DNA of 64,000 bases, from positions 186,001 to 250,000 of the forward strand of contig NZ_JOIU01000003.1 in the NCBI RefSeq assembly GCF_000720135.1. Reading direction: 5' to 3'. This stretch comes from Streptomyces sp. NRRL S-1022. GTDB lineage: Bacteria; Actinomycetota; Actinomycetes; Streptomycetales; Streptomycetaceae. The number at the start of each line of letters is the position of its first letter. Positions within the stretch are counted from its first letter, which is position 1. Made by a program: the position numbers and the translations under genes. The notes below the pieces were generated by a model. That model was not told where the DNA came from, did no database searches, and saw nothing but the letters and a program-made list of their open reading frames with translations. Positions 49,095 through 56,071 of the stretch are shown here, one piece after another.

Positions 49095-50795
49095 ATGGAC
49101 GCTCACGCCATCGAGGAAGGCCGCCGACGCTGGCAGGCCCGCTACGACGCCGCGCGCAAGCGCGACGCGGACTTCACCACGCTCTCCGGCGATCCCGTGG
49201 AGCCGGTGTACGGGCCCCGGCCGGGTGACACGTACGAGGGATTCGAGCGGATCGGCTGGCCCGGGGAGTACCCCTACACGCGCGGGCTCCATCCGACCGG
49301 CTACCGCGGACGGACCTGGACGATCCGCCAGTTCGCCGGCTTCGGCAACGCCGAGCAGACCAACGAGCGGTACAAGATGATCCTCGCCGCCGGCGGCGGG
49401 GGCCTGTCGGTCGCCTTCGACATGCCGACGCTCATGGGCCGCGACTCCGACGACCCGCGCTCGCTCGGCGAGGTCGGGCACTGCGGGGTCGCCATCGACT
49501 CGGCCGCCGACATGGAGGTGCTGTTCAAGGACATCCCGCTGGGGGACGTGACGACGTCCATGACCATCAGCGGGCCGGCCGTGCCGGTCTTCTGCATGTA
49601 CCTGGTCGCCGCCGAACGGCAGGGTGTGGACCCGGCGGTGCTCAACGGCACCCTCCAGACCGACATCTTCAAGGAGTACATCGCCCAGAAGGAGTGGCTC
49701 TTCCAGCCGGAGCCCCATCTGCGGCTCATCGGCGACCTGATGGAGCACTGCGCGGCGGGCATCCCCGCGTACAAGCCGCTGTCCGTGTCCGGGTACCACA
49801 TCCGGGAGGCGGGGGCCACGGCCGCGCAGGAGCTGGCGTACACGCTCGCGGACGGGTTCGGGTACGTCGAGCTGGGGCTCAGCCGCGGTCTCGACGTCGA
49901 CGTCTTCGCCCCCGGCCTGTCCTTCTTCTTCGACGCGCACGTCGACTTCTTCGAGGAGATCGCCAAGTTCCGCGCGGCCCGGCGCATCTGGGCCCGGTGG
50001 ATGCGGGACGTGTACGGCGCGAAGAGCGACAAGGCGCAGTGGCTGCGGTTCCACACCCAGACCGCGGGTGTCTCGCTGACCGCCCAGCAGCCGTACAACA
50101 ACGTGGTGCGCACGGCCGTGGAGGCGCTGGCCGCCGTGCTCGGCGGGACCAACTCGCTGCACACCAACGCGCTGGACGAGACCCTCGCGCTGCCCAGCGA
50201 GCAGGCCGCGGAGATCGCGCTGCGGACCCAGCAGGTGCTGATGGAGGAGACCGGGGTCGCCAACGTGGCCGATCCGCTCGGCGGTTCCTGGTACGTCGAG
50301 CAGCTGACGGACCGGATCGAGGCGGACGCGGAGAAGATCTTCGAGCAGATCAAGGAGCGCGGGCTGCGGGCTCACCCGGACGGGCGACACCCGATCGGGC
50401 CCATCACGTCCGGGATCCTGCGCGGCATCGAGGACGGCTGGTTCACCGGGGAGATCGCCGAGTCCGCGTTCCGGTACCAGCAGGCGCTGGAGAAGGGCGA
50501 GAAGAGGGTCGTCGGCGTCAACGTCCACACCGGCTCCGTCACCGGGGACCTGGAGATCCTGCGGGTCAGCCACGAGGTGGAGCGCGAGCAGGTGCGGGTC
50601 CTCGCCGAGCGCAAGGCCGCGCGGGACGAGGCGGCGGTGCGCGAGGCGCTGGACGGGATGCTGGCCGCGGCGCGGTCCGGGGCCAACATGATCGAGCCGA
50701 TGCTCCGGGCCGTGCGGGCCGAGGCGACGCTGGGCGAGATCTGCGGGGTGCTGCGGGACGAGTGGGGCGTGTACACCGAGCCCCCCGGCTTCTAG
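49095..50795 (+). CDS. icmA: Isobutyryl-CoA mutase large subunit, 566 aa
   Basis: Substrate-binding TIM-barrel subunit of an adenosylcobalamin mutase that isomerises isobutyryl- and n-butyryl-CoA. Its length equals the known 566-aa IcmA, and it lacks the C-terminal B12 domain, which a separate small subunit (IcmB) supplies. Two residues that distinguish IcmA from methylmalonyl-CoA mutase are present: Phe80 in TIRQFAGF and Gln198 in AQKE. A short leader or leaderless start follows the palindrome. Its stop overlaps the TetR stop on the other strand. It needs the PduO and MeaB proteins also encoded in this window. Confidence 0.95.
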
Positions 50796-51421
50796 CCGCC
50801 CTCGGCCGGCGGGGAGGCGAGGCCCAGCAGGAGCAGCCGGGTGAAGGTGCGCACCCAGTGTTCGTCCGCCGGTTTGCCGCTCACCAGGGTGCGGTGCACC
50901 ACCGCGCCCGCGACCACGTCGAAGATGAGGTCCACGATGCGGGCGGACTCGCCCGGGTCCGGTTCCGGCGGGAGTTCGCCCCGCCGCTGGGCCCGGGCGC
51001 GGCCCTCCAGGACCAGGCGCAGCTGGCGGTCCACGATGGAGGCGCGGATGCGTTCGCGCAGGGCGTCGTCGCGGGTGGCCTCGGCGACCACCGCCATCAG
51101 GCCACTCTTGGCCTCCGGCCGGGCCAGGATCGCGGCGAACTGGAGCACGACGCCCTCGATGTCGGCGGCGAGGCTGCCCCGGTCGGGCAGCTCCAGCTCG
51201 TCGAAGAGTTCCGCCACGGCGTCCACGACCAGTTCGTTCTTGCCCGCCCAGCGGCGGTAGAGCGTGGTCTTCGCAACCCCGGCCCGCGTGGCGACGTCTC
51301 CCAGGGTGAGCTTGGACCAGCCGAGTTCGACCAGAGCCTCCCGGGTCGCGGCCAGGATCGCGGTGTCCGCGGCGGCGCTGCGCGGGCGTCCGGTACGGCT
51401 GGCGGGGGTGCGGCTCTGCAT
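50792..51421 (-). CDS. TetR family regulator, 209 aa
   Basis: Helix-turn-helix LTLGDVATRAGVAKTTLYRRWAGKNELV (about residues 37-64). Generic ligand-binding domain. Convergent with icmA, sharing the four bases CTAG in overlapping stops. A -10 box TATGGT (51428-51433, minus strand) lies six bases before the ATG (leaderless). The 17-bp palindrome at 51505-51521 is its closest candidate operator, and it may also control the thioredoxin-TPR gene. Whether it acts on icmA is open. Confidence 0.92.
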   Translation of the reverse strand: MQSRTPASRTGRPRSAAADTAILAATREALVELGWSKLTLGDVATRAGVAKTTLYRRWAGKNELVVDAVAELFDELELPDRGSLAADIEGVVLQFAAILARPEAKSGLMAVVAEATRDDALRERIRASIVDRQLRLVLEGRARAQRRGELPPEPDPGESARIVDLIFDVVAGAVVHRTLVSGKPADEHWVRTFTRLLLLGLASPPAEGG

Positions 51422-51504: not shown

Positions 51505-51521
51505 CGCTACGAGTCGTAGCG
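51505..51521. promoter_or_regulatory. 17-bp TetR-type palindrome between tetR and the thioredoxin-TPR gene
   Basis: CGCTACGA-G-TCGTAGCG is a perfect palindrome, in the 209-bp divergent gap. It lies about 84 bp from the TetR start and 110 bp from the other gene. Confidence 0.6.
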
Positions 51522-51630
51522 AAAGCTCGTGAGGGACGTACGCGGGCGACGACCGAGGCGTGGGGTGGGGACCCGGCGCCGCACATCGCTTTTTTTTCGC
51601 TCAGGCGCGGGATCGGGGGAGGATAGACGC

Positions 51631-52602
51631 ATGCAGCCACGGAACATGTCCATGAGCGGTGTCGTCGACCTCGCCGCGGTGAAGGCGGCCCAAGAGGCCA
51701 AGGCCAAGGCCGAGCAGGCGCGCGCCGAAGCCGCCCGGCGGGGCGGGACGGGAGCCGTCTCCCCGGCCGATCTCGTCATCGACGTCGATGAGGCAGGGTT
51801 CGAACGGGACATCCTGCAACGCTCCGCCGAAGTGCCCGTCGTCATCGACTTCTGGGCCGAGTGGTGCGAGCCCTGCAAGCAGCTGAGCCCGGTCCTGGAG
51901 CGGCTGGCCGTCGAGTACGACGGGCGCTTCCTGCTCGCCCGGATCGACGTCGACGCCAACCAGATGCTGATGCAGCAGTTCGGGATCCAGGGCATCCCGG
52001 CCGTCTTCGCCGTGGTGGCCGGACAGGCGCTGCCGCTGTTCCAGGGGGCGGCCGGCGAGCAGCAGATCCGGCAGACCCTGGACCAGCTGGTGCAGGTCGC
52101 CGAGGAGCGCTTCGGTCTGACCGGCCTGACCGTCGACCCGGAGGCCGAGCCGGGCGGTGCCGTCGGGGCCGAGGCGCCCGAGGGGCCGTACGAAGCCGCC
52201 CTGAACGCCGCCGCCCGGGCGCTGGACGCGGGCGACCTGGGCGGGGCGGTCCAGGCGTACAAGAACGTGCTGGCCGAGGACCCGGGCCACCCGGAGGCCA
52301 AGCTGGGCCTGGCGCAGGCCGAGTTGCTCCAGCGGGTGCAGGGCGCGGACCCGCAGAAGGTGCGCCAGGAGGCCGCCGAGAAGCCGAAGGACATCCAGGC
52401 GCAGATCGCCGCCGCCGACCTGGACCTGGTGGGCGGTCATGTCGAGGACGCCTTCGGACGGCTGATCGAGACCGTGCAGCGCACGGCGGGCGACGACCGG
52501 GACGCGGTACGGCGCCGGCTGCTGGAGCTGTTCGAGGTCGTGGGCCAGGACGACCCGCGCGTGGTGGGTGCGCGCCGTGCCCTCGCGCGCGCCCTGTTCT
52601 GA
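51631..52602 (+). CDS. Thioredoxin-TPR co-chaperone of the YbbN/CnoX family, 323 aa
   Basis: The thioredoxin domain (about residues 48-160) has WCEPCK with both active-site cysteines (Cys79, Cys82), unlike E. coli YbbN, where one is lost. A helical C-terminal part of about 150 residues (ALNAAARALDAGDLGGAVQAYKNVLAEDPGHPEAKLGLAQAEL...) is TPR-like. YbbN-type proteins hold oxidised clients for chaperones. A GGGGGAGG ribosome-binding site precedes ATG 51631. Terminated by a hairpin at 52617-52637. Confidence 0.9.
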   Translation: MQPRNMSMSGVVDLAAVKAAQEAKAKAEQARAEAARRGGTGAVSPADLVIDVDEAGFERDILQRSAEVPVVIDFWAEWCEPCKQLSPVLERLAVEYDGRFLLARIDVDANQMLMQQFGIQGIPAVFAVVAGQALPLFQGAAGEQQIRQTLDQLVQVAEERFGLTGLTVDPEAEPGGAVGAEAPEGPYEAALNAAARALDAGDLGGAVQAYKNVLAEDPGHPEAKLGLAQAELLQRVQGADPQKVRQEAAEKPKDIQAQIAAADLDLVGGHVEDAFGRLIETVQRTAGDDRDAVRRRLLELFEVVGQDDPRVVGARRALARALF

Positions 52603-52637: not shown

Positions 52638-52675
52638 TGAAAGGTTCGCCGACGAGGTGTCACGGCGACCGCGCT

Positions 52676-52692
52676 TTACCAAATCTTGGTAA
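52676..52692. promoter_or_regulatory. Palindrome TTACCAA-ATC-TTGGTAA
   Basis: A perfect 17-bp palindrome, first of a series in the 620-bp control region (52603-53222) upstream of the three-gene envelope module. Confidence 0.5.
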
Positions 52693-52704: not shown

Positions 52705-52717
52705 TTACTGCGAGTAA
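52705..52717. promoter_or_regulatory. TTACT-GCG-AGTAA motif
   Basis: First TTACT-N-AGTAA palindrome (3-bp centre). It belongs to the same motif type as the site at 52832-52849 and is 12 bp after the previous palindrome. Confidence 0.5.
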
Positions 52718-52831: not shown

Positions 52832-52849
52832 CGTTACTAGCCAGTAACG
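52832..52849. promoter_or_regulatory. 18-bp palindrome CGTTACT-AGCC-AGTAACG
   Basis: The second and longer TTACT-N4-AGTAA site; its arms are perfect over 7 bp. GACCGGCCGGTC (52802-52813) lies 19 bp upstream. A repressor or activator of the module starting at 53223 is likely. Confidence 0.6.
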
Positions 52850-52997
52850 AACCCCCTTGTGTCCGGGCCGAGAATGCACCACGATCGGCGACGCTCGGTC
52901 CATTCCCGTACCCCGGCACCCGGTCGGGTCACGGGAGACTCTGGGTCCCCACCGAGCAGAGCCGGCGGCAGTGGCGCCGGGTCTAGGGCAGGGGGGT

Positions 52998-53015
52998 CTT
53001 CACCGGCCGGTGAAG
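52998..53015. promoter_or_regulatory. 18-bp perfect palindrome CTTCACCGGCCGGTGAAG
   Basis: It lies 208 bp before the start of the secreted-protein gene, in the same non-coding region. No protein-coding gene is seen between 52603 and 53222 with normal Streptomyces codon bias. Confidence 0.55.
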
Positions 53016-53222
53016 CCTGTCCAGCAAGGTTGTGCGTGATGTGTGTCAGGCGCGACCAGTGGTTGTCGCTCGGGGGTGATCGCCGGTGATTCGGGCGCGG
53101 TACGCGCCGCCGAGCGCGGGCGCTCTCCTTTCCGAGGACGTAGCACTTCTCCCATCCCTGCCCGACTGAGCCGCCGATCGGCGAGTCCGGGCCAGGAGAT
53201 GTACGTCCGAGAAGGAGGAAAT

Positions 53223-53861
53223 ATGGAGTCCCAGGTGCGTGGCGGGACCAGATGGAAGCGGTTCGCTGTGGTCATGGTGCCCAGCGTGGCCGCCACGGCG
53301 TGTATAGGTGTCGCCCTCGCGCAGGGTGCTCTCGCCGCCTCGTTCAGCGTGTCCGGCCAGTCGTTCAAGGTGTCCGCCGACCAGCTCGTCGGCACCGGCT
53401 TCGAGCAGTACGGCGCCATCGACAGCGGCTACACGATGGACGGCAAGAAGACGGCGCACCCGGTGGCCGTCTCGGCGTTCAAGCACGCCGAGATCACCAA
53501 CCTGTGCCAGTCCGTGGTCACGCCCGACGTGCCGATCTTCGGCAACGTCAGCCTGATCCTGCGGGCCGGCGGCGCGGGCCACGACAAGGTCCAGGCCGAC
53601 AACATCTACATCGACGTTGCCGACCTCAACGCCGACGCGGTCTTCGACAACATCGACATCGGTGTGGCCGCCAAGGACGCCTCCAAGGGTCCGGGCATGA
53701 AGGGCGGCGGCGAGCAGGCCAACCCCTTCGGCTTCGCCCAGCAGGCCGACAAGGCCACGCTGTCCGACGTGAAGCAGACGGCGTGGGCGACCACGGCCGG
53801 CACCTTCAAGCTGAGCGGCCTGAAGATGTCGGTGTCGACGGGTGTCAAGGAGTGCTACTAG
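53223..53861 (+). CDS. DUF6230-type secreted/membrane protein, 212 aa
   Basis: N-terminal basic head followed by one hydrophobic stretch (residues about 13-38, MVPSVAATACIGVALAQGALAA), then an extracellular beta-rich domain (SFSVSGQSFKVSADQLVGTGFEQYGAID...) with two Cys residues (about 94 and the penultimate one) that could pair. AAGGAGG sits four bases before ATG 53223, the strongest ribosome-binding site in the window. I recall homologues called DUF6230 or, without support that I can see, cholesterol esterase; there is no Ser-His-Asp lipase motif. First gene of a three-gene module. Confidence 0.8.
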   Translation: MESQVRGGTRWKRFAVVMVPSVAATACIGVALAQGALAASFSVSGQSFKVSADQLVGTGFEQYGAIDSGYTMDGKKTAHPVAVSAFKHAEITNLCQSVVTPDVPIFGNVSLILRAGGAGHDKVQADNIYIDVADLNADAVFDNIDIGVAAKDASKGPGMKGGGEQANPFGFAQQADKATLSDVKQTAWATTAGTFKLSGLKMSVSTGVKECY

Positions 53862-53976
53862 GCACTCGCTGACGGGCGGGGGAGCCGGTGGCGCCCCCGC
53901 CCGTCCACTCTCCGGCCGCGTTCCCACACGCGGCACACATCACCACCACAGCAACGCCGCACCAGGGAGCTGTTTC

Positions 53977-54567
53977 ATGAGCGCCGAGACTCCTGCCGCC
54001 GCACCCGGCCAGTTCACCCGCCGGAGGCTGCAGTTCCGCGCCTGGCGGGGCACGCGTCCGTTCTGGGCCGGTCTGTTCGTCATGCTCGGCGGCTTTCCGA
54101 TCATGTACTTCCCGTACGCCCACCTCCAGCTCGGCCATCTGACGCTGGCGATGGCGACCACCGCGGGAGCCGGCTCCCTGATCATCGGTGTGCTGCTCAT
54201 CGTGCTGGGGATCAGCCTCTGGTTCCAGAAGCACGTACGGACCTTCGCGGGCGTCGCCGCGATCCTGCTCGGACTGGTGTCCATCCCCGTGTCCAACTTC
54301 GGCGGCTTCGTCGTGGGCTTCCTGCTCGCCCTGGTCGGCGGAGCGATGGCCGTGGCCTGGGCGCCGGGCGCGCCCCCGCAGCAGCAGCCGCCGGCCGAGG
54401 CCGCCCCGGACGAGGGCGGCGCTCCCGACACGGCTCCGCTGCCGCACCAGGGCACGGACCCGACGGCCGCCGCGGGCCCCGCCGGGCCCTACAAGGCGCC
54501 GTGGGAGAACGACCTGTCAGGAACGAGCCCGGCCAACGGGGCGAACGGGAGGCACAGTGCCGGCTGA
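53977..54567 (+). CDS. DUF6114-type four-helix membrane protein, 196 aa
   Basis: Four membrane segments (about residues 29-48, 55-78, 80-98, 105-128: RPFWAGLFVMLGGFPIMYF, LTLAMATTAGAGSLIIGVLLIVLGISLWF, FAGVAAILLGLVSIPV, FGGFVVGFLLALVGGAMAVAW) and a Pro/Ala-rich cytoplasmic tail. AGGGAG precedes ATG 53977. Separated by 115 bp from the first gene and overlapping the third by 11 bp. Homologues are regularly adjacent to DUF6230 proteins, so the two probably work together at the membrane. Function unknown. Confidence 0.8.
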   Translation: MSAETPAAAPGQFTRRRLQFRAWRGTRPFWAGLFVMLGGFPIMYFPYAHLQLGHLTLAMATTAGAGSLIIGVLLIVLGISLWFQKHVRTFAGVAAILLGLVSIPVSNFGGFVVGFLLALVGGAMAVAWAPGAPPQQQPPAEAAPDEGGAPDTAPLPHQGTDPTAAAGPAGPYKAPWENDLSGTSPANGANGRHSAG

Positions 54568-56071
54568 CGAGGTGACCCGCGGGACCGATGTGGACGGGTC
54601 CCGCGCGAGAACCGGGCCCCGCCACGCGGCCCCCAGGAAGCCCCTGTTCACCAGGTTCCACATGCCGGCCGGCAAGGCCATAGCCTCCGTGGCGATGCCC
54701 ACGGCGGTACTCATGGGCATGGGCTTCACCTCCACGCTCGCCCTCGCCGACAACAACGGCAGCCCGTCCCCGTCGACCTCGGCGAAGAGCCTGACGGCCG
54801 ACGAGTACAAGGACTGCGTCAAGGCGCTGGACGACGACAAGAAGCCCTCGGCCTCGCCGTCGCCGTCCGCGTCGGAGAGCAGCACGGCGCCGTCGCCGTC
54901 GAAGACCTCGGGCAGCGGCAAGACGCAGGAGTCGGGCAAGACCTCCACCCCGGAGCCGGGTTCCGGCGGTGACACGGCCGAGCCCACGCCCACCGAGACG
55001 TCCGGGTCCGGGTCGGGCCCCGGTTCCGGCGGGTCGGACTCCGGTTCGTCCGGCTCGGGTTCGTCCGGCTCGGGTTCGTCCGGCTCGGGTTCGTCCGGCT
55101 CGGGTTCGTCCGGGTCCGGTTCGTCCGGCTCGGACACGTCCGGCTCGGGTTCCGCCTCCGGCGGCGACACGGGCACGTCGACGACCCCGCAGACCCAGGG
55201 CGGCGGCGGGAACGTCCTGGACACCATCGGCGACACGATCGGTGACATCCTCACCGGCGGCGGCAAGGACTCCGGCACGGCGTCGCAGACCCCGGCCCCG
55301 GCCCCGTCCGCGTCGCAGTCCGCGGACACCTCGTCCACGGGCACCTCGTCCACGGGCACCTCGCCCACGGACACCTCCTCGACGGGCACCTCGTCGGGCG
55401 GTGGCAAGGACTCCAAGGCCTCCGACCCCGTGCAGGACACGGCGAAGAAGTCTGGCGACACGGTCGGGAAGACGGTGAAGGACACCACCGGCACCGTCTC
55501 CAAGGCCGGCGAGGACACCGCCGGGACGGCCGGGGACGCGACCGCGACCGCGACGGCCACGCCGAGCCCGTCCGCGAGCGAGTCGGCCTCCGCCGACGAC
55601 TGCCCCGTGGCCACGGACGACCAGGGCGGCGTCGACAACAAGGTGCCGGTCGCGGACGACCCCTGGCACCTGAACGCCAGCTCCCTGCTTCTGAAGGGCG
55701 CGGACTACCAGGGCATCGTGAAGGTGAGGACGGCGAACGGCACCACCAAGAAGGTGCTGAAGTACGTCATCTCCGGCGGCACCGACATCGGCGACCTGCA
55801 CCAGACGGTGCAGGACAAGCAGGCGGGCAAGACCTACCACGTCCAGGCGGCCAAGGGCTCGACGTCCACCATCACCGGCGGCGACACGGTGATGTACACC
55901 GAGAGCATCTCGGGCAACCTGTTCGGGCTGATACCCGTGACCTTCAGCCCCGACAGCCCGCCCCCGCTGAACATCCCGCTGATCTACTTCACCAACGTCA
56001 AGGTGGTGCAGGCGGCCCAGTTCGGCGGCAACCTGCACGTGCCCGGCATGCACGTGTACACGACCGACTGA
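54557..56071 (+). CDS. Ser/Gly-repeat membrane-anchored envelope protein of unknown function, 504 aa
   Basis: N-terminal positively charged region (residues 1-40) and a hydrophobic signal/anchor (about 42-65). Then a long low-complexity stretch: SPSPSA/SES, TPTETSGSGSG and a near-perfect SGSGS/SSGSG tract of about 50 residues (nucleotides 55010-55160), further Thr/Ser/Lys-rich segments, and a folded C-terminal domain of about 135 residues beginning CPVATDDQGG and containing ADDPWHLNASSLLLKGADYQG and YTESISGNLFGLIPVTF. GTG 54557 overlaps the previous gene. Nothing supports a hydrogenase-maturation role sometimes attached to homologues. Confidence 0.8.
   Translation: MPADEVTRGTDVDGSRARTGPRHAAPRKPLFTRFHMPAGKAIASVAMPTAVLMGMGFTSTLALADNNGSPSPSTSAKSLTADEYKDCVKALDDDKKPSASPSPSASESSTAPSPSKTSGSGKTQESGKTSTPEPGSGGDTAEPTPTETSGSGSGPGSGGSDSGSSGSGSSGSGSSGSGSSGSGSSGSGSSGSDTSGSGSASGGDTGTSTTPQTQGGGGNVLDTIGDTIGDILTGGGKDSGTASQTPAPAPSASQSADTSSTGTSSTGTSPTDTSSTGTSSGGGKDSKASDPVQDTAKKSGDTVGKTVKDTTGTVSKAGEDTAGTAGDATATATATPSPSASESASADDCPVATDDQGGVDNKVPVADDPWHLNASSLLLKGADYQGIVKVRTANGTTKKVLKYVISGGTDIGDLHQTVQDKQAGKTYHVQAAKGSTSTITGGDTVMYTESISGNLFGLIPVTFSPDSPPPLNIPLIYFTNVKVVQAAQFGGNLHVPGMHVYTTD
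55010..55160 (+). repeat. Tandem GGCTCGGGTTCGTCC tract encoding Ser/Gly repeats
   Basis: 15-bp units encoding SGSGS recur almost perfectly about six times, then degenerate. Unlike the Gly/Thr tract at 24.1-24.4 kb the units share codons, so this one may have expanded recently by slippage. Confidence 0.75.

What the first reader, a model, noticed from the sequence alone, without database searches (positions are those of the whole stretch)
53223..56071. Three-gene envelope module (DUF6230, DUF6114, Ser/Gly-anchored protein)
A secreted protein, a four-helix membrane protein and a large anchored protein with SGSGS repeats and a folded end, overlapping or closely spaced, under a strong ribosome-binding site and a complex control region. 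None has an enzymatic motif that I can see. The organisation suggests a surface complex of unknown role, and is my first candidate for an undescribed system. The first and second families are recalled by name only.
Basis: partly seen in the sequence, partly recalled or inferred. Interest (0 to 1): 0.7.

Follow-up and report, generated by a model that had tools for sequence, protein, structure and literature searches.

The report
Envelope gene trio for greasy molecules
Three neighbouring Streptomyces genes, one of which is widely mislabelled as a cholesterol-digesting enzyme, encode a conserved cell-envelope set with bacterial and archaeal relatives that is most likely used to handle greasy molecules such as fats, oils or sterols.

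Summary
In detail: three co-oriented genes at 53223-56071 (DUF6230; DUF6114; an unnamed Ser/Gly-linker protein). In 118 genomes every DUF6114 match has DUF6230 just upstream (34 of 34), and the third protein's folded end occurs only at this locus (15 of 15). In 47 of 80 named loci that end is fused to DUF6114: the third gene is the split-off outer half of the second. ORF1 relatives are named 'cholesterol esterase', but no catalytic triad is conserved. The leader carries Rfam RNA che1. A protein sharing 67 of 71 sequenced residues of the alkane-induced Geobacillus P21 is DUF6230; P21's orthologue lies in an alkane-monooxygenase cluster (PMC10867098). SCO5420, the orthologue by synteny, rose about 37-fold on Tween 40 (PMC7494193). 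In 27 of 27 Nocardiopsidaceae loci the module adjoins a cholesterol-oxidase relative. A haloarchaeon has the DUF6230-DUF6114 pair. Best reading: a module that handles hydrophobic substrates in monoderm envelopes. Transport is inferred; a protective role or simple glucose repression is not excluded.

The parts
52675..52692 (+). Palindrome TTTACCAAATCTTGGTAA, probable operator
   Evidence: The only match in the 8.9-Mb genome at up to 2 mismatches. The TTACCAA/TTGGTAA form is present in 20 of 37 genus loci.
52705..52717 (+). TTACTGCGAGTAA inverted repeat, possible second operator
   Evidence: 1 match in the window against 0.04 expected. Aligned with similar sites in the 8 genus genomes, less well kept in one of them (L049).
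52833..52848 (+). GTTACTAGCCAGTAAC inverted repeat, probable operator
   Evidence: The only exact match in the genome, plus one with 1 mismatch elsewhere. The GTTACT-N4-AGTAAC form is present in 30 of 37 genus loci.
52985..53085 (+). che1 RNA (RF02935), 5' leader element
   Evidence: 93.5 bits, E 8.6e-14, alignment. Found in 97 of 101 genus genomes, one copy each.
53118..53147 (+). Conserved leader block that can pair either with the che1 3' tail or with the ribosome-binding-site region
   Evidence: Consensus fold of 37 sequences and pairing probabilities. Pairs are nearly invariant, so covariation cannot test it.
53209..53219 (+). Ribosome-binding site GAGAAGGAGGA
   Evidence: Identical in 36 of 37 aligned leaders, one substitution in the other.
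53223..53861 (+). ORF1, DUF6230 protein: signal peptide plus all-beta domain with two conserved cysteines (C95, C211)
   Evidence: PF19741 E 1.4e-58. Model mean pLDDT 87, pTM 0.75. C95 and C211 in 61 of 61 aligned proteins.
53977..54567 (+). ORF2, DUF6114 membrane protein, probably four helices
   Evidence: PF19609 E 6.5e-35. Four-helix bundle in the model of a fused relative; plain hydropathy shows two strong segments in ORF2 itself.
54557..56071 (+). ORF3, secreted or membrane-tethered protein: signal-like segment, Ser/Gly/Thr/Pro linker, C-terminal domain (about residues 368-504)
   Evidence: C-terminal region found at the module in 15 of 15 genomes that have it. Fused to DUF6114 in 47 of 80 named loci.

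Best explanation
The three genes form one envelope module of monoderm prokaryotes that handles hydrophobic molecules (fatty-acid esters, alkanes, sterols). SHOWN HERE: the genes are co-conserved and ordered DUF6230 > DUF6114 > C-terminal (CT) domain; in most of the named loci the CT domain is fused to DUF6114 behind an extra hydrophobic segment and a flexible linker, so ORF3 is the detached outer arm of ORF2; DUF6230 is predicted as an all-beta protein behind a signal peptide; DUF6230 includes a near-identical relative of Geobacillus P21. SHOWN BY OTHERS: P21 begins at the residue after the signal peptide, is found in the insoluble (membrane) fraction and is induced by alkanes; SCO5420 rises on Tween 40. 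INFERRED: the DUF6230 beta-barrel sits on the outer face of the membrane and binds long hydrophobic chains; DUF6114 is its membrane dock; the CT domain on its flexible arm reaches into or through the wall; together they pass the hydrophobic molecule to membrane enzymes. Also inferred: two locus-specific palindromes, and a che1 leader whose conserved block can pair either with the che1 tail or with the ribosome-binding-site region, switch the module on when such substrates replace glucose.
For: Co-conservation: DUF6230 in 22 of 118 class genomes, DUF6114 over cut-off in 21, 34 of 34 DUF6114 with DUF6230 directly upstream, Fisher p 2e-22. Named loci: 79 of 80 with DUF6230 upstream, the exception (L095) cut by its contig end. 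Fusion: 47 of 80; the split state also lies inside the fused Nocardiopsis clade (3 loci), so fission recurred. P21: the four peptides printed in PMC2676291 find P0241 (E 1.7e-29), which carries 67 of their 71 residues in order and is DUF6230 over cut-off, 38.4 against 27.5 bits. P21 alkane-induced at protein and mRNA level (PMC2676291). GK2770, the P21 orthologue, and GK2771, an alkane monooxygenase, are in one alkane/beta-oxidation gene cluster (PMC10867098). SCO5420 almost 37-fold up on Tween 40 against glucose (PMC7494193). Cholesterol-oxidase-family gene divergent to the module in 27 of 27 Nocardiopsidaceae loci (family assigned on the L066 copy). DUF6230 and DUF6114, both over cut-off, adjacent in the haloarchaeon Natronococcus.
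Against: No binding or transport was measured by anyone in what I read. Tween was compared with glucose only, and a 'putative cholesterol esterase' of SirexAA-E also rises on xylose and xylobiose (PMC12772271), so relief of glucose repression could explain induction. P21 was not induced by palmitic acid, tributyrin or trimyristin. In S. venezuelae another 'cholesterol esterase' responds to nitrogen starvation (PMC3087709). 22 of 118 class genomes is patchy for a general lipid system. The cholesterol-oxidase neighbour is confined to one family (0 of 53 other loci). The Rhodococcus plasmid copies sit among glycosyltransferase and envelope genes, not lipid catabolism. No solved structure clearly resembles the DUF6230 model.
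Confidence: 0.45

Rival explanations
1. A protective or structural envelope layer. DUF6230 is an abundant beta-protein that coats or stiffens the membrane-wall interface, and the module shields cells from solvents, detergents and surfactants rather than importing them.
For: P21 and P16 are Coomassie-visible in total protein and recovered in the insoluble fraction (PMC2676291). Tween is itself a detergent. The array loci with 3 DUF6230 copies carry a signal peptidase I-like gene within about 0.9 kb upstream in 10 of 10 cases, against 0 of 70 other loci (tblastn E<=1e-8; Pfam-confirmed in the 4 scanned), as would suit bulk secreted structural proteins. Rhodococcus copies lie near FUSC and YihY envelope genes.
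Against: GK2770 sits in a catabolic cluster with an alkane monooxygenase and beta-oxidation genes, which suggests use rather than defence. No fibre or S-layer family matches.
Confidence: 0.28
2. A glucose-repressed or general starvation-induced envelope module with no lipid specificity; the lipid links are coincidences of the comparisons made.
For: SirexAA-E protein up on xylose and xylobiose. Tween was compared only with glucose. The window locus lies between thioredoxin and pyruvate-kinase/acetate genes (the latter labels recalled from the translations), not lipid genes. An S. venezuelae relative by name responds to nitrogen starvation.
Against: Geobacillus P21 and P16 were induced by alkanes at protein and mRNA level, and there is genomic linkage to an alkane monooxygenase in Bacillota and to a cholesterol-oxidase relative in Nocardiopsidaceae.
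Confidence: 0.18
3. ORF1 is a true cholesterol (or Tween) esterase, as its database name and several papers say.
For: UniRef and NCBI names of relatives. A 1994 cloning report on S. lavendulae, cited in PMC2676291 but not read by me. The Tween 40 induction was read that way by its authors.
Against: Across 61 diverse DUF6230 proteins the only fully conserved residues are G35, C95 and C211. No His or Glu column reaches 75%, so no Ser-His-Asp triad is conserved. No hydrolase family matches. No hydrolase fold stands out in the structure search. The authors of PMC2676291 also doubted it for P21 and P16.
Confidence: 0.06

Closest known systems
Geobacillus P21 and P16 (GK2770 and GK3040 orthologues), alkane-inducible membrane proteins
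   Same: A protein with 67 of P21's 71 sequenced residues is DUF6230 over cut-off, with the signal-peptide cut at the matching place. The authors describe the AlphaFold models of P21 and P16 as a large beta-barrel with an N-terminal helix, which fits the long strands of the model here.
   Different: About 200-aa Bacillota proteins. Whether a DUF6114 gene lies beside them could not be checked. P21 and P16 orthologues are 270 locus numbers apart, not in a window-like trio.
Streptomyces 'cholesterol esterase' (S. lavendulae; SCO5420; SLIV_11405)
   Same: Same gene family by database name and, for SLIV_11405, by the che1 leader (PMC8079986). SCO5420 is taken as the orthologue by its place before pyk2 (SCO5423).
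   Different: The enzymatic role is not supported by residue conservation. The neighbours DUF6114 and ORF3 are not mentioned in the passages read.
che1 RNA motif (RF02935; Weinberg et al. 2017, citation only)
   Same: The window element matches the whole 91-position model at 93.5 bits.
   Different: The conserved structure reaches further than the Rfam model: its unpaired 3' tail is predicted to pair with a second conserved block about 33-62 nt downstream, before the ribosome-binding site.
Mce, Lpt and LmeA-type envelope lipid carriers (recalled)
   Same: Proposed job: moving hydrophobic molecules across the envelope with beta-domains and a membrane partner.
   Different: No sequence match in Pfam or NCBIfam, no ATPase among the three genes, and no such fold high in the structural lists (one LolA entry at Foldseek rank 36 with E 0.52).

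Membership tests
DUF6230 (PF19741) | Match over Pfam's gathering score | tested here: met
   197.8 bits against 27.5.
DUF6114 (PF19609) | Match over Pfam's gathering score | tested here: met
   120.4 bits against 27.9.
che1 RNA (RF02935) | Match over Rfam's gathering score, full model length | tested here: met
   93.5 bits against 54.1, positions 1-91 of 91.
Cholesterol esterase / serine hydrolase | Conserved catalytic Ser-His-Asp/Glu triad | tested here: not met
   In 61 aligned proteins no His or Glu column reaches 75%; Ser44 50/61, Ser97 49/61, Asp131 48/61.
Cholesterol esterase / serine hydrolase | Measured esterase activity | not testable with these tools
   The 1994 report is cited in PMC2676291 and was not read.
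Sortase-anchored surface protein (ORF3) | C-terminal LPXTG motif, hydrophobic segment and charged tail | tested here: not met
   ORF3 ends ...GGNLHVPGMHVYTTD; no hydrophobic 19-residue window above 1.5 anywhere in it.
Alkane-inducible P21/P16 group | Same protein family as ORF1 | tested here: met
   P0241, with 67 of 71 printed P21 residues, is PF19741 over cut-off. P21's own full sequence and P16 were not tested.
Alkane-inducible P21/P16 group | Induced by alkanes | not tested
   No expression data on alkanes for Streptomyces were found; only Tween 40.
SipW/TasA-type fibre system | TasA fold and archaeal-type signal peptidase (SipW) | tested here: inconclusive
   The array-linked peptidase of L116 scores as bacterial type (TIGR02227 88.6 bits, cut-off 47) rather than archaeal type (TIGR02228 24.8, cut-off 51.85). 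TasA was not among the listed structural matches, which excludes nothing.
Mce / Lpt / LolA-type lipid carriers | Shared fold | tested here: inconclusive

The most novel reading that the evidence does not exclude
A previously unrecognised hydrophobic-substrate uptake machine of monoderm envelopes, shared by Actinomycetota, Bacillota and haloarchaea, built from a new beta fold (DUF6230 and a distant copy of it on a wall-spanning arm) plus a four-helix membrane dock, and in Streptomyces controlled by che1 acting as a ribosome-binding-site switch.
Probability: 0.25. Interest if true: 0.85.

Novelty: new variant of a known kind. Interest (0 to 1): 0.62.

Why it matters
How monoderm bacteria with thick walls take up very hydrophobic substrates (alkanes, sterols, long fatty-acid esters) is, to my knowledge, largely open. 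If the module does this, it ties together four separate loose ends (the Streptomyces 'cholesterol esterase', the orphan che1 RNA, the alkane-induced Geobacillus P21, and two Pfam families of unknown function) and makes the question testable by deletion in a laboratory Streptomyces strain. At the least, the name 'cholesterol esterase' deserves doubt, since an expression study still interprets SCO5420 as the enzyme (PMC7494193).

Tried and rejected

Rows dropped before counts: locus L125 (frame-broken array) was left out of the protein lists; alignments used parts of what was held (A5: 56 of 96 DUF6230 hits, 4 of 120 P ids and the window; A6: 42 of 54 CT hits and the window; A7: 41 of 47 fused; A8: 37 loci drawn, where 97 of 101 genus genomes match). 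The class sample is 118 genomes, and the che1 search over it used filters that lose weak matches. The named set is the best 80 of 251 confirmed loci and was found through DUF6114 of Nocardiopsis-like relatives, so it over-represents them. The splits in L096 and L100 may be assembly frameshifts.
Full report
What is there. The window lies in contig C3 of an 8.9-Mb genome; of the 120 listed relatives of ORF1, those with an organism name are Streptomyces. Three + strand genes at 53223-53861, 53977-54567 and 54557-56071 encode a DUF6230 protein, a DUF6114 protein and a 504-residue protein with no Pfam or NCBIfam match. The third has a signal-like segment around residues 41-62, a Ser/Gly/Thr-rich middle with tandem arrays and a conserved C-terminal region. 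In the 120 best of 2796 relatives that region is 87% or more identical, while whole-protein length varies from 407 to 500.

Is it more than chance? In 118 genomes of the class DUF6230 occurs in 22 and DUF6114 (over cut-off) in 21 of the same 22; all 34 DUF6114 matches have a same-strand DUF6230 within 500 bp upstream (Fisher p 2e-22). The exception is G085, with DUF6230 but no DUF6114 found. Two further genomes have DUF6114-like matches below cut-off and no DUF6230. The C-terminal region of ORF3 is found in 15 of 118 genomes, always downstream of DUF6114 (15 of 15). In a scan of named genomes, 79 of the 80 kept loci have DUF6230 upstream of DUF6114; the one exception is cut by its contig end. 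The own genome has a second, two-gene copy without ORF3.

What ORF3 is. In 47 of the 80 named loci the C-terminal domain lies in the same reading frame as DUF6114: membrane helices, a cytoplasmic stretch, one more hydrophobic segment, a Pro/Glu/Ser-rich linker and the domain. In the window this protein is cut in two, with an 11-bp overlap, just before the extra hydrophobic segment. A tree of the DUF6114 domain (81 rows, 126 columns, many forks unresolved) puts the split state in the Streptomyces group with the window, and separately inside fused Nocardiopsis (three loci). So ORF2 and ORF3 very probably work as one object. The other 33 named loci: 7 split, 12 without the domain, 4 with too little flank to tell, and 10 with alternating arrays of DUF6230 and DUF6114; in the 9 arrays examined a further secreted protein of no known family lies before the last DUF6230. 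All 10 arrays, and none of the 70 other loci, have a signal peptidase I-like gene within about 0.9 kb upstream (tblastn; Pfam-confirmed in the 4 scanned); in L114 it is on the opposite strand.

Folds. DUF6230 is predicted with good confidence (mean pLDDT 87, pTM 0.75) as one helix (signal peptide) and long strands of up to 23 residues. No solved or viral structure resembles it clearly. A fused Actinomadura protein gives a four-helix membrane bundle and an all-beta C-terminal domain at block pLDDT 92-98 (pTM 0.51 overall). A profile comparison suggests, without proving, that this domain and DUF6230 are distant relatives.

The old names. Some relatives of ORF1 carry the name 'cholesterol esterase'. 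In PMC2676291 (abstract, section 8 and passages read) Geobacillus P21 and P16, induced by alkanes and recovered in insoluble form with the membranes, are said to resemble S. lavendulae cholesterol esterase at their N-termini, though the authors doubted that they are that enzyme. I searched with the four printed P21 peptides and found P0241, an unnamed-source protein with 67 of their 71 residues in order and DUF6230 over the Pfam cut-off. P21's sequenced N-terminus fixes the signal-peptidase cut, which by alignment lies before A39 of ORF1. PMC10867098 (section 16 and passages) puts the P21 orthologue GK2770 in a gene cluster with GK2771, an alkane monooxygenase, and beta-oxidation genes, and describes the AlphaFold models of P21 and P16 as large beta-barrels with an N-terminal helix. 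PMC7494193 (section 5 read) reports 'cholesterol esterase (SCO5420)' almost 37-fold up on Tween 40 against glucose. That SCO5420-5422 are the window's orthologues is inferred from position before pyk2 (SCO5423). An enzyme is unlikely: over 61 sequences only G35, C95 and C211 are invariant and no His or Glu column reaches 75%.

Wider context. In all 27 Nocardiopsidaceae loci (0 of 53 others) a divergent gene encodes a cholesterol-oxidase relative (the L066 copy gives NF058674 563 bits, below its 850-bit cut-off, and cholesterol oxidases as best solved structures). A Natronococcus plasmid encodes a DUF6230 protein (38.7 bits, over cut-off), a DUF6114 protein immediately after it (90.9 bits), and then, at 6121-7410 of L148, a secreted protein whose long acidic linker follows rather than precedes its folded part. 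So the pair crosses the bacterial/archaeal line, and a third secreted protein may too. Two Rhodococcus plasmids carry the pair near glycosyltransferases and envelope genes.

Control region. RF02935 (che1) matches at 52985-53085. It is present in 97 of 101 genus genomes, once each. In the 8 genus genomes of the class sample it lies just upstream of this locus, not of the second copy; it was found in none of the other 110 class genomes, with filters that lose weak matches. PMC8079986 lists it as a cis-regulatory element and PMC11678152 says its function is unknown (passages). In 37 leaders the conserved 3' tail of che1 pairs with a second conserved block (mean pairing 0.53), and that block can instead pair with the ribosome-binding-site region (mean 0.15 in the whole leader, 0.60 without che1). 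The pairs hardly vary, so covariation cannot decide, and the accessibility change is small. Upstream, TTTACCAAATCTTGGTAA and GTTACTAGCCAGTAAC each occur once exactly in the genome, pointing to a locus-specific regulator that I could not identify.

Verdict. The module is real, conserved and probably mis-named. Handling of hydrophobic molecules is the explanation that best unites the independent leads: alkane induction, Tween induction, linkage to an alkane monooxygenase, and linkage to a cholesterol-oxidase relative. Glucose relief or a protective coat would explain parts of it equally well, and no one has measured binding or transport in what I read. No paper on the module as a unit was found by searches for DUF6230, DUF6114, SCO5420-5422, che1 with Streptomyces, and GK2769/GK2770/GK3040; the library holds open-licence papers only.

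Noticed in passing
L005 4180-5354 (own genome, contig C2): Second DUF6230-DUF6114 pair without ORF3, with an N-terminal extension on DUF6230, followed by a gene that looks like Spo0M (label recalled).
   Followed up: partly
51506-51520: Palindrome GCTACGAGTCGTAGC between the divergent TetR-family gene (50792-51421, -) and the thioredoxin/TPR gene (51529-52602, +), a likely operator of that TetR; it differs from the module's palindromes.
   Followed up: no
L114, L116, L125, L129, L132, L134, L138, L141, L143, L144: Alternating DUF6230/DUF6114 arrays with a signal peptidase I-like gene nearby in 10 of 10, and a further secreted protein X of no known family in the 9 loci examined.
   Followed up: partly
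L066-L087 and L089-L093: Cholesterol-oxidase-family gene divergent to the module in every Nocardiopsidaceae locus held (27).
   Followed up: yes
L148 4899-7410: Haloarchaeal (Natronococcus) DUF6230-DUF6114 pair followed by a secreted protein with a long Asp/Glu/Thr-rich linker.
   Followed up: partly
L181 1501-1516: The only near-copy (1 mismatch) of the GTTACT-NNCN-AGTAAC element elsewhere in the genome, at the start of a short reading frame resembling a hotdog thioesterase (label recalled).
   Followed up: no
L146 and L147: Two Rhodococcus megaplasmids carry the DUF6230-DUF6114 pair beside glycosyltransferase, FUSC and YihY-type envelope genes.
   Followed up: no
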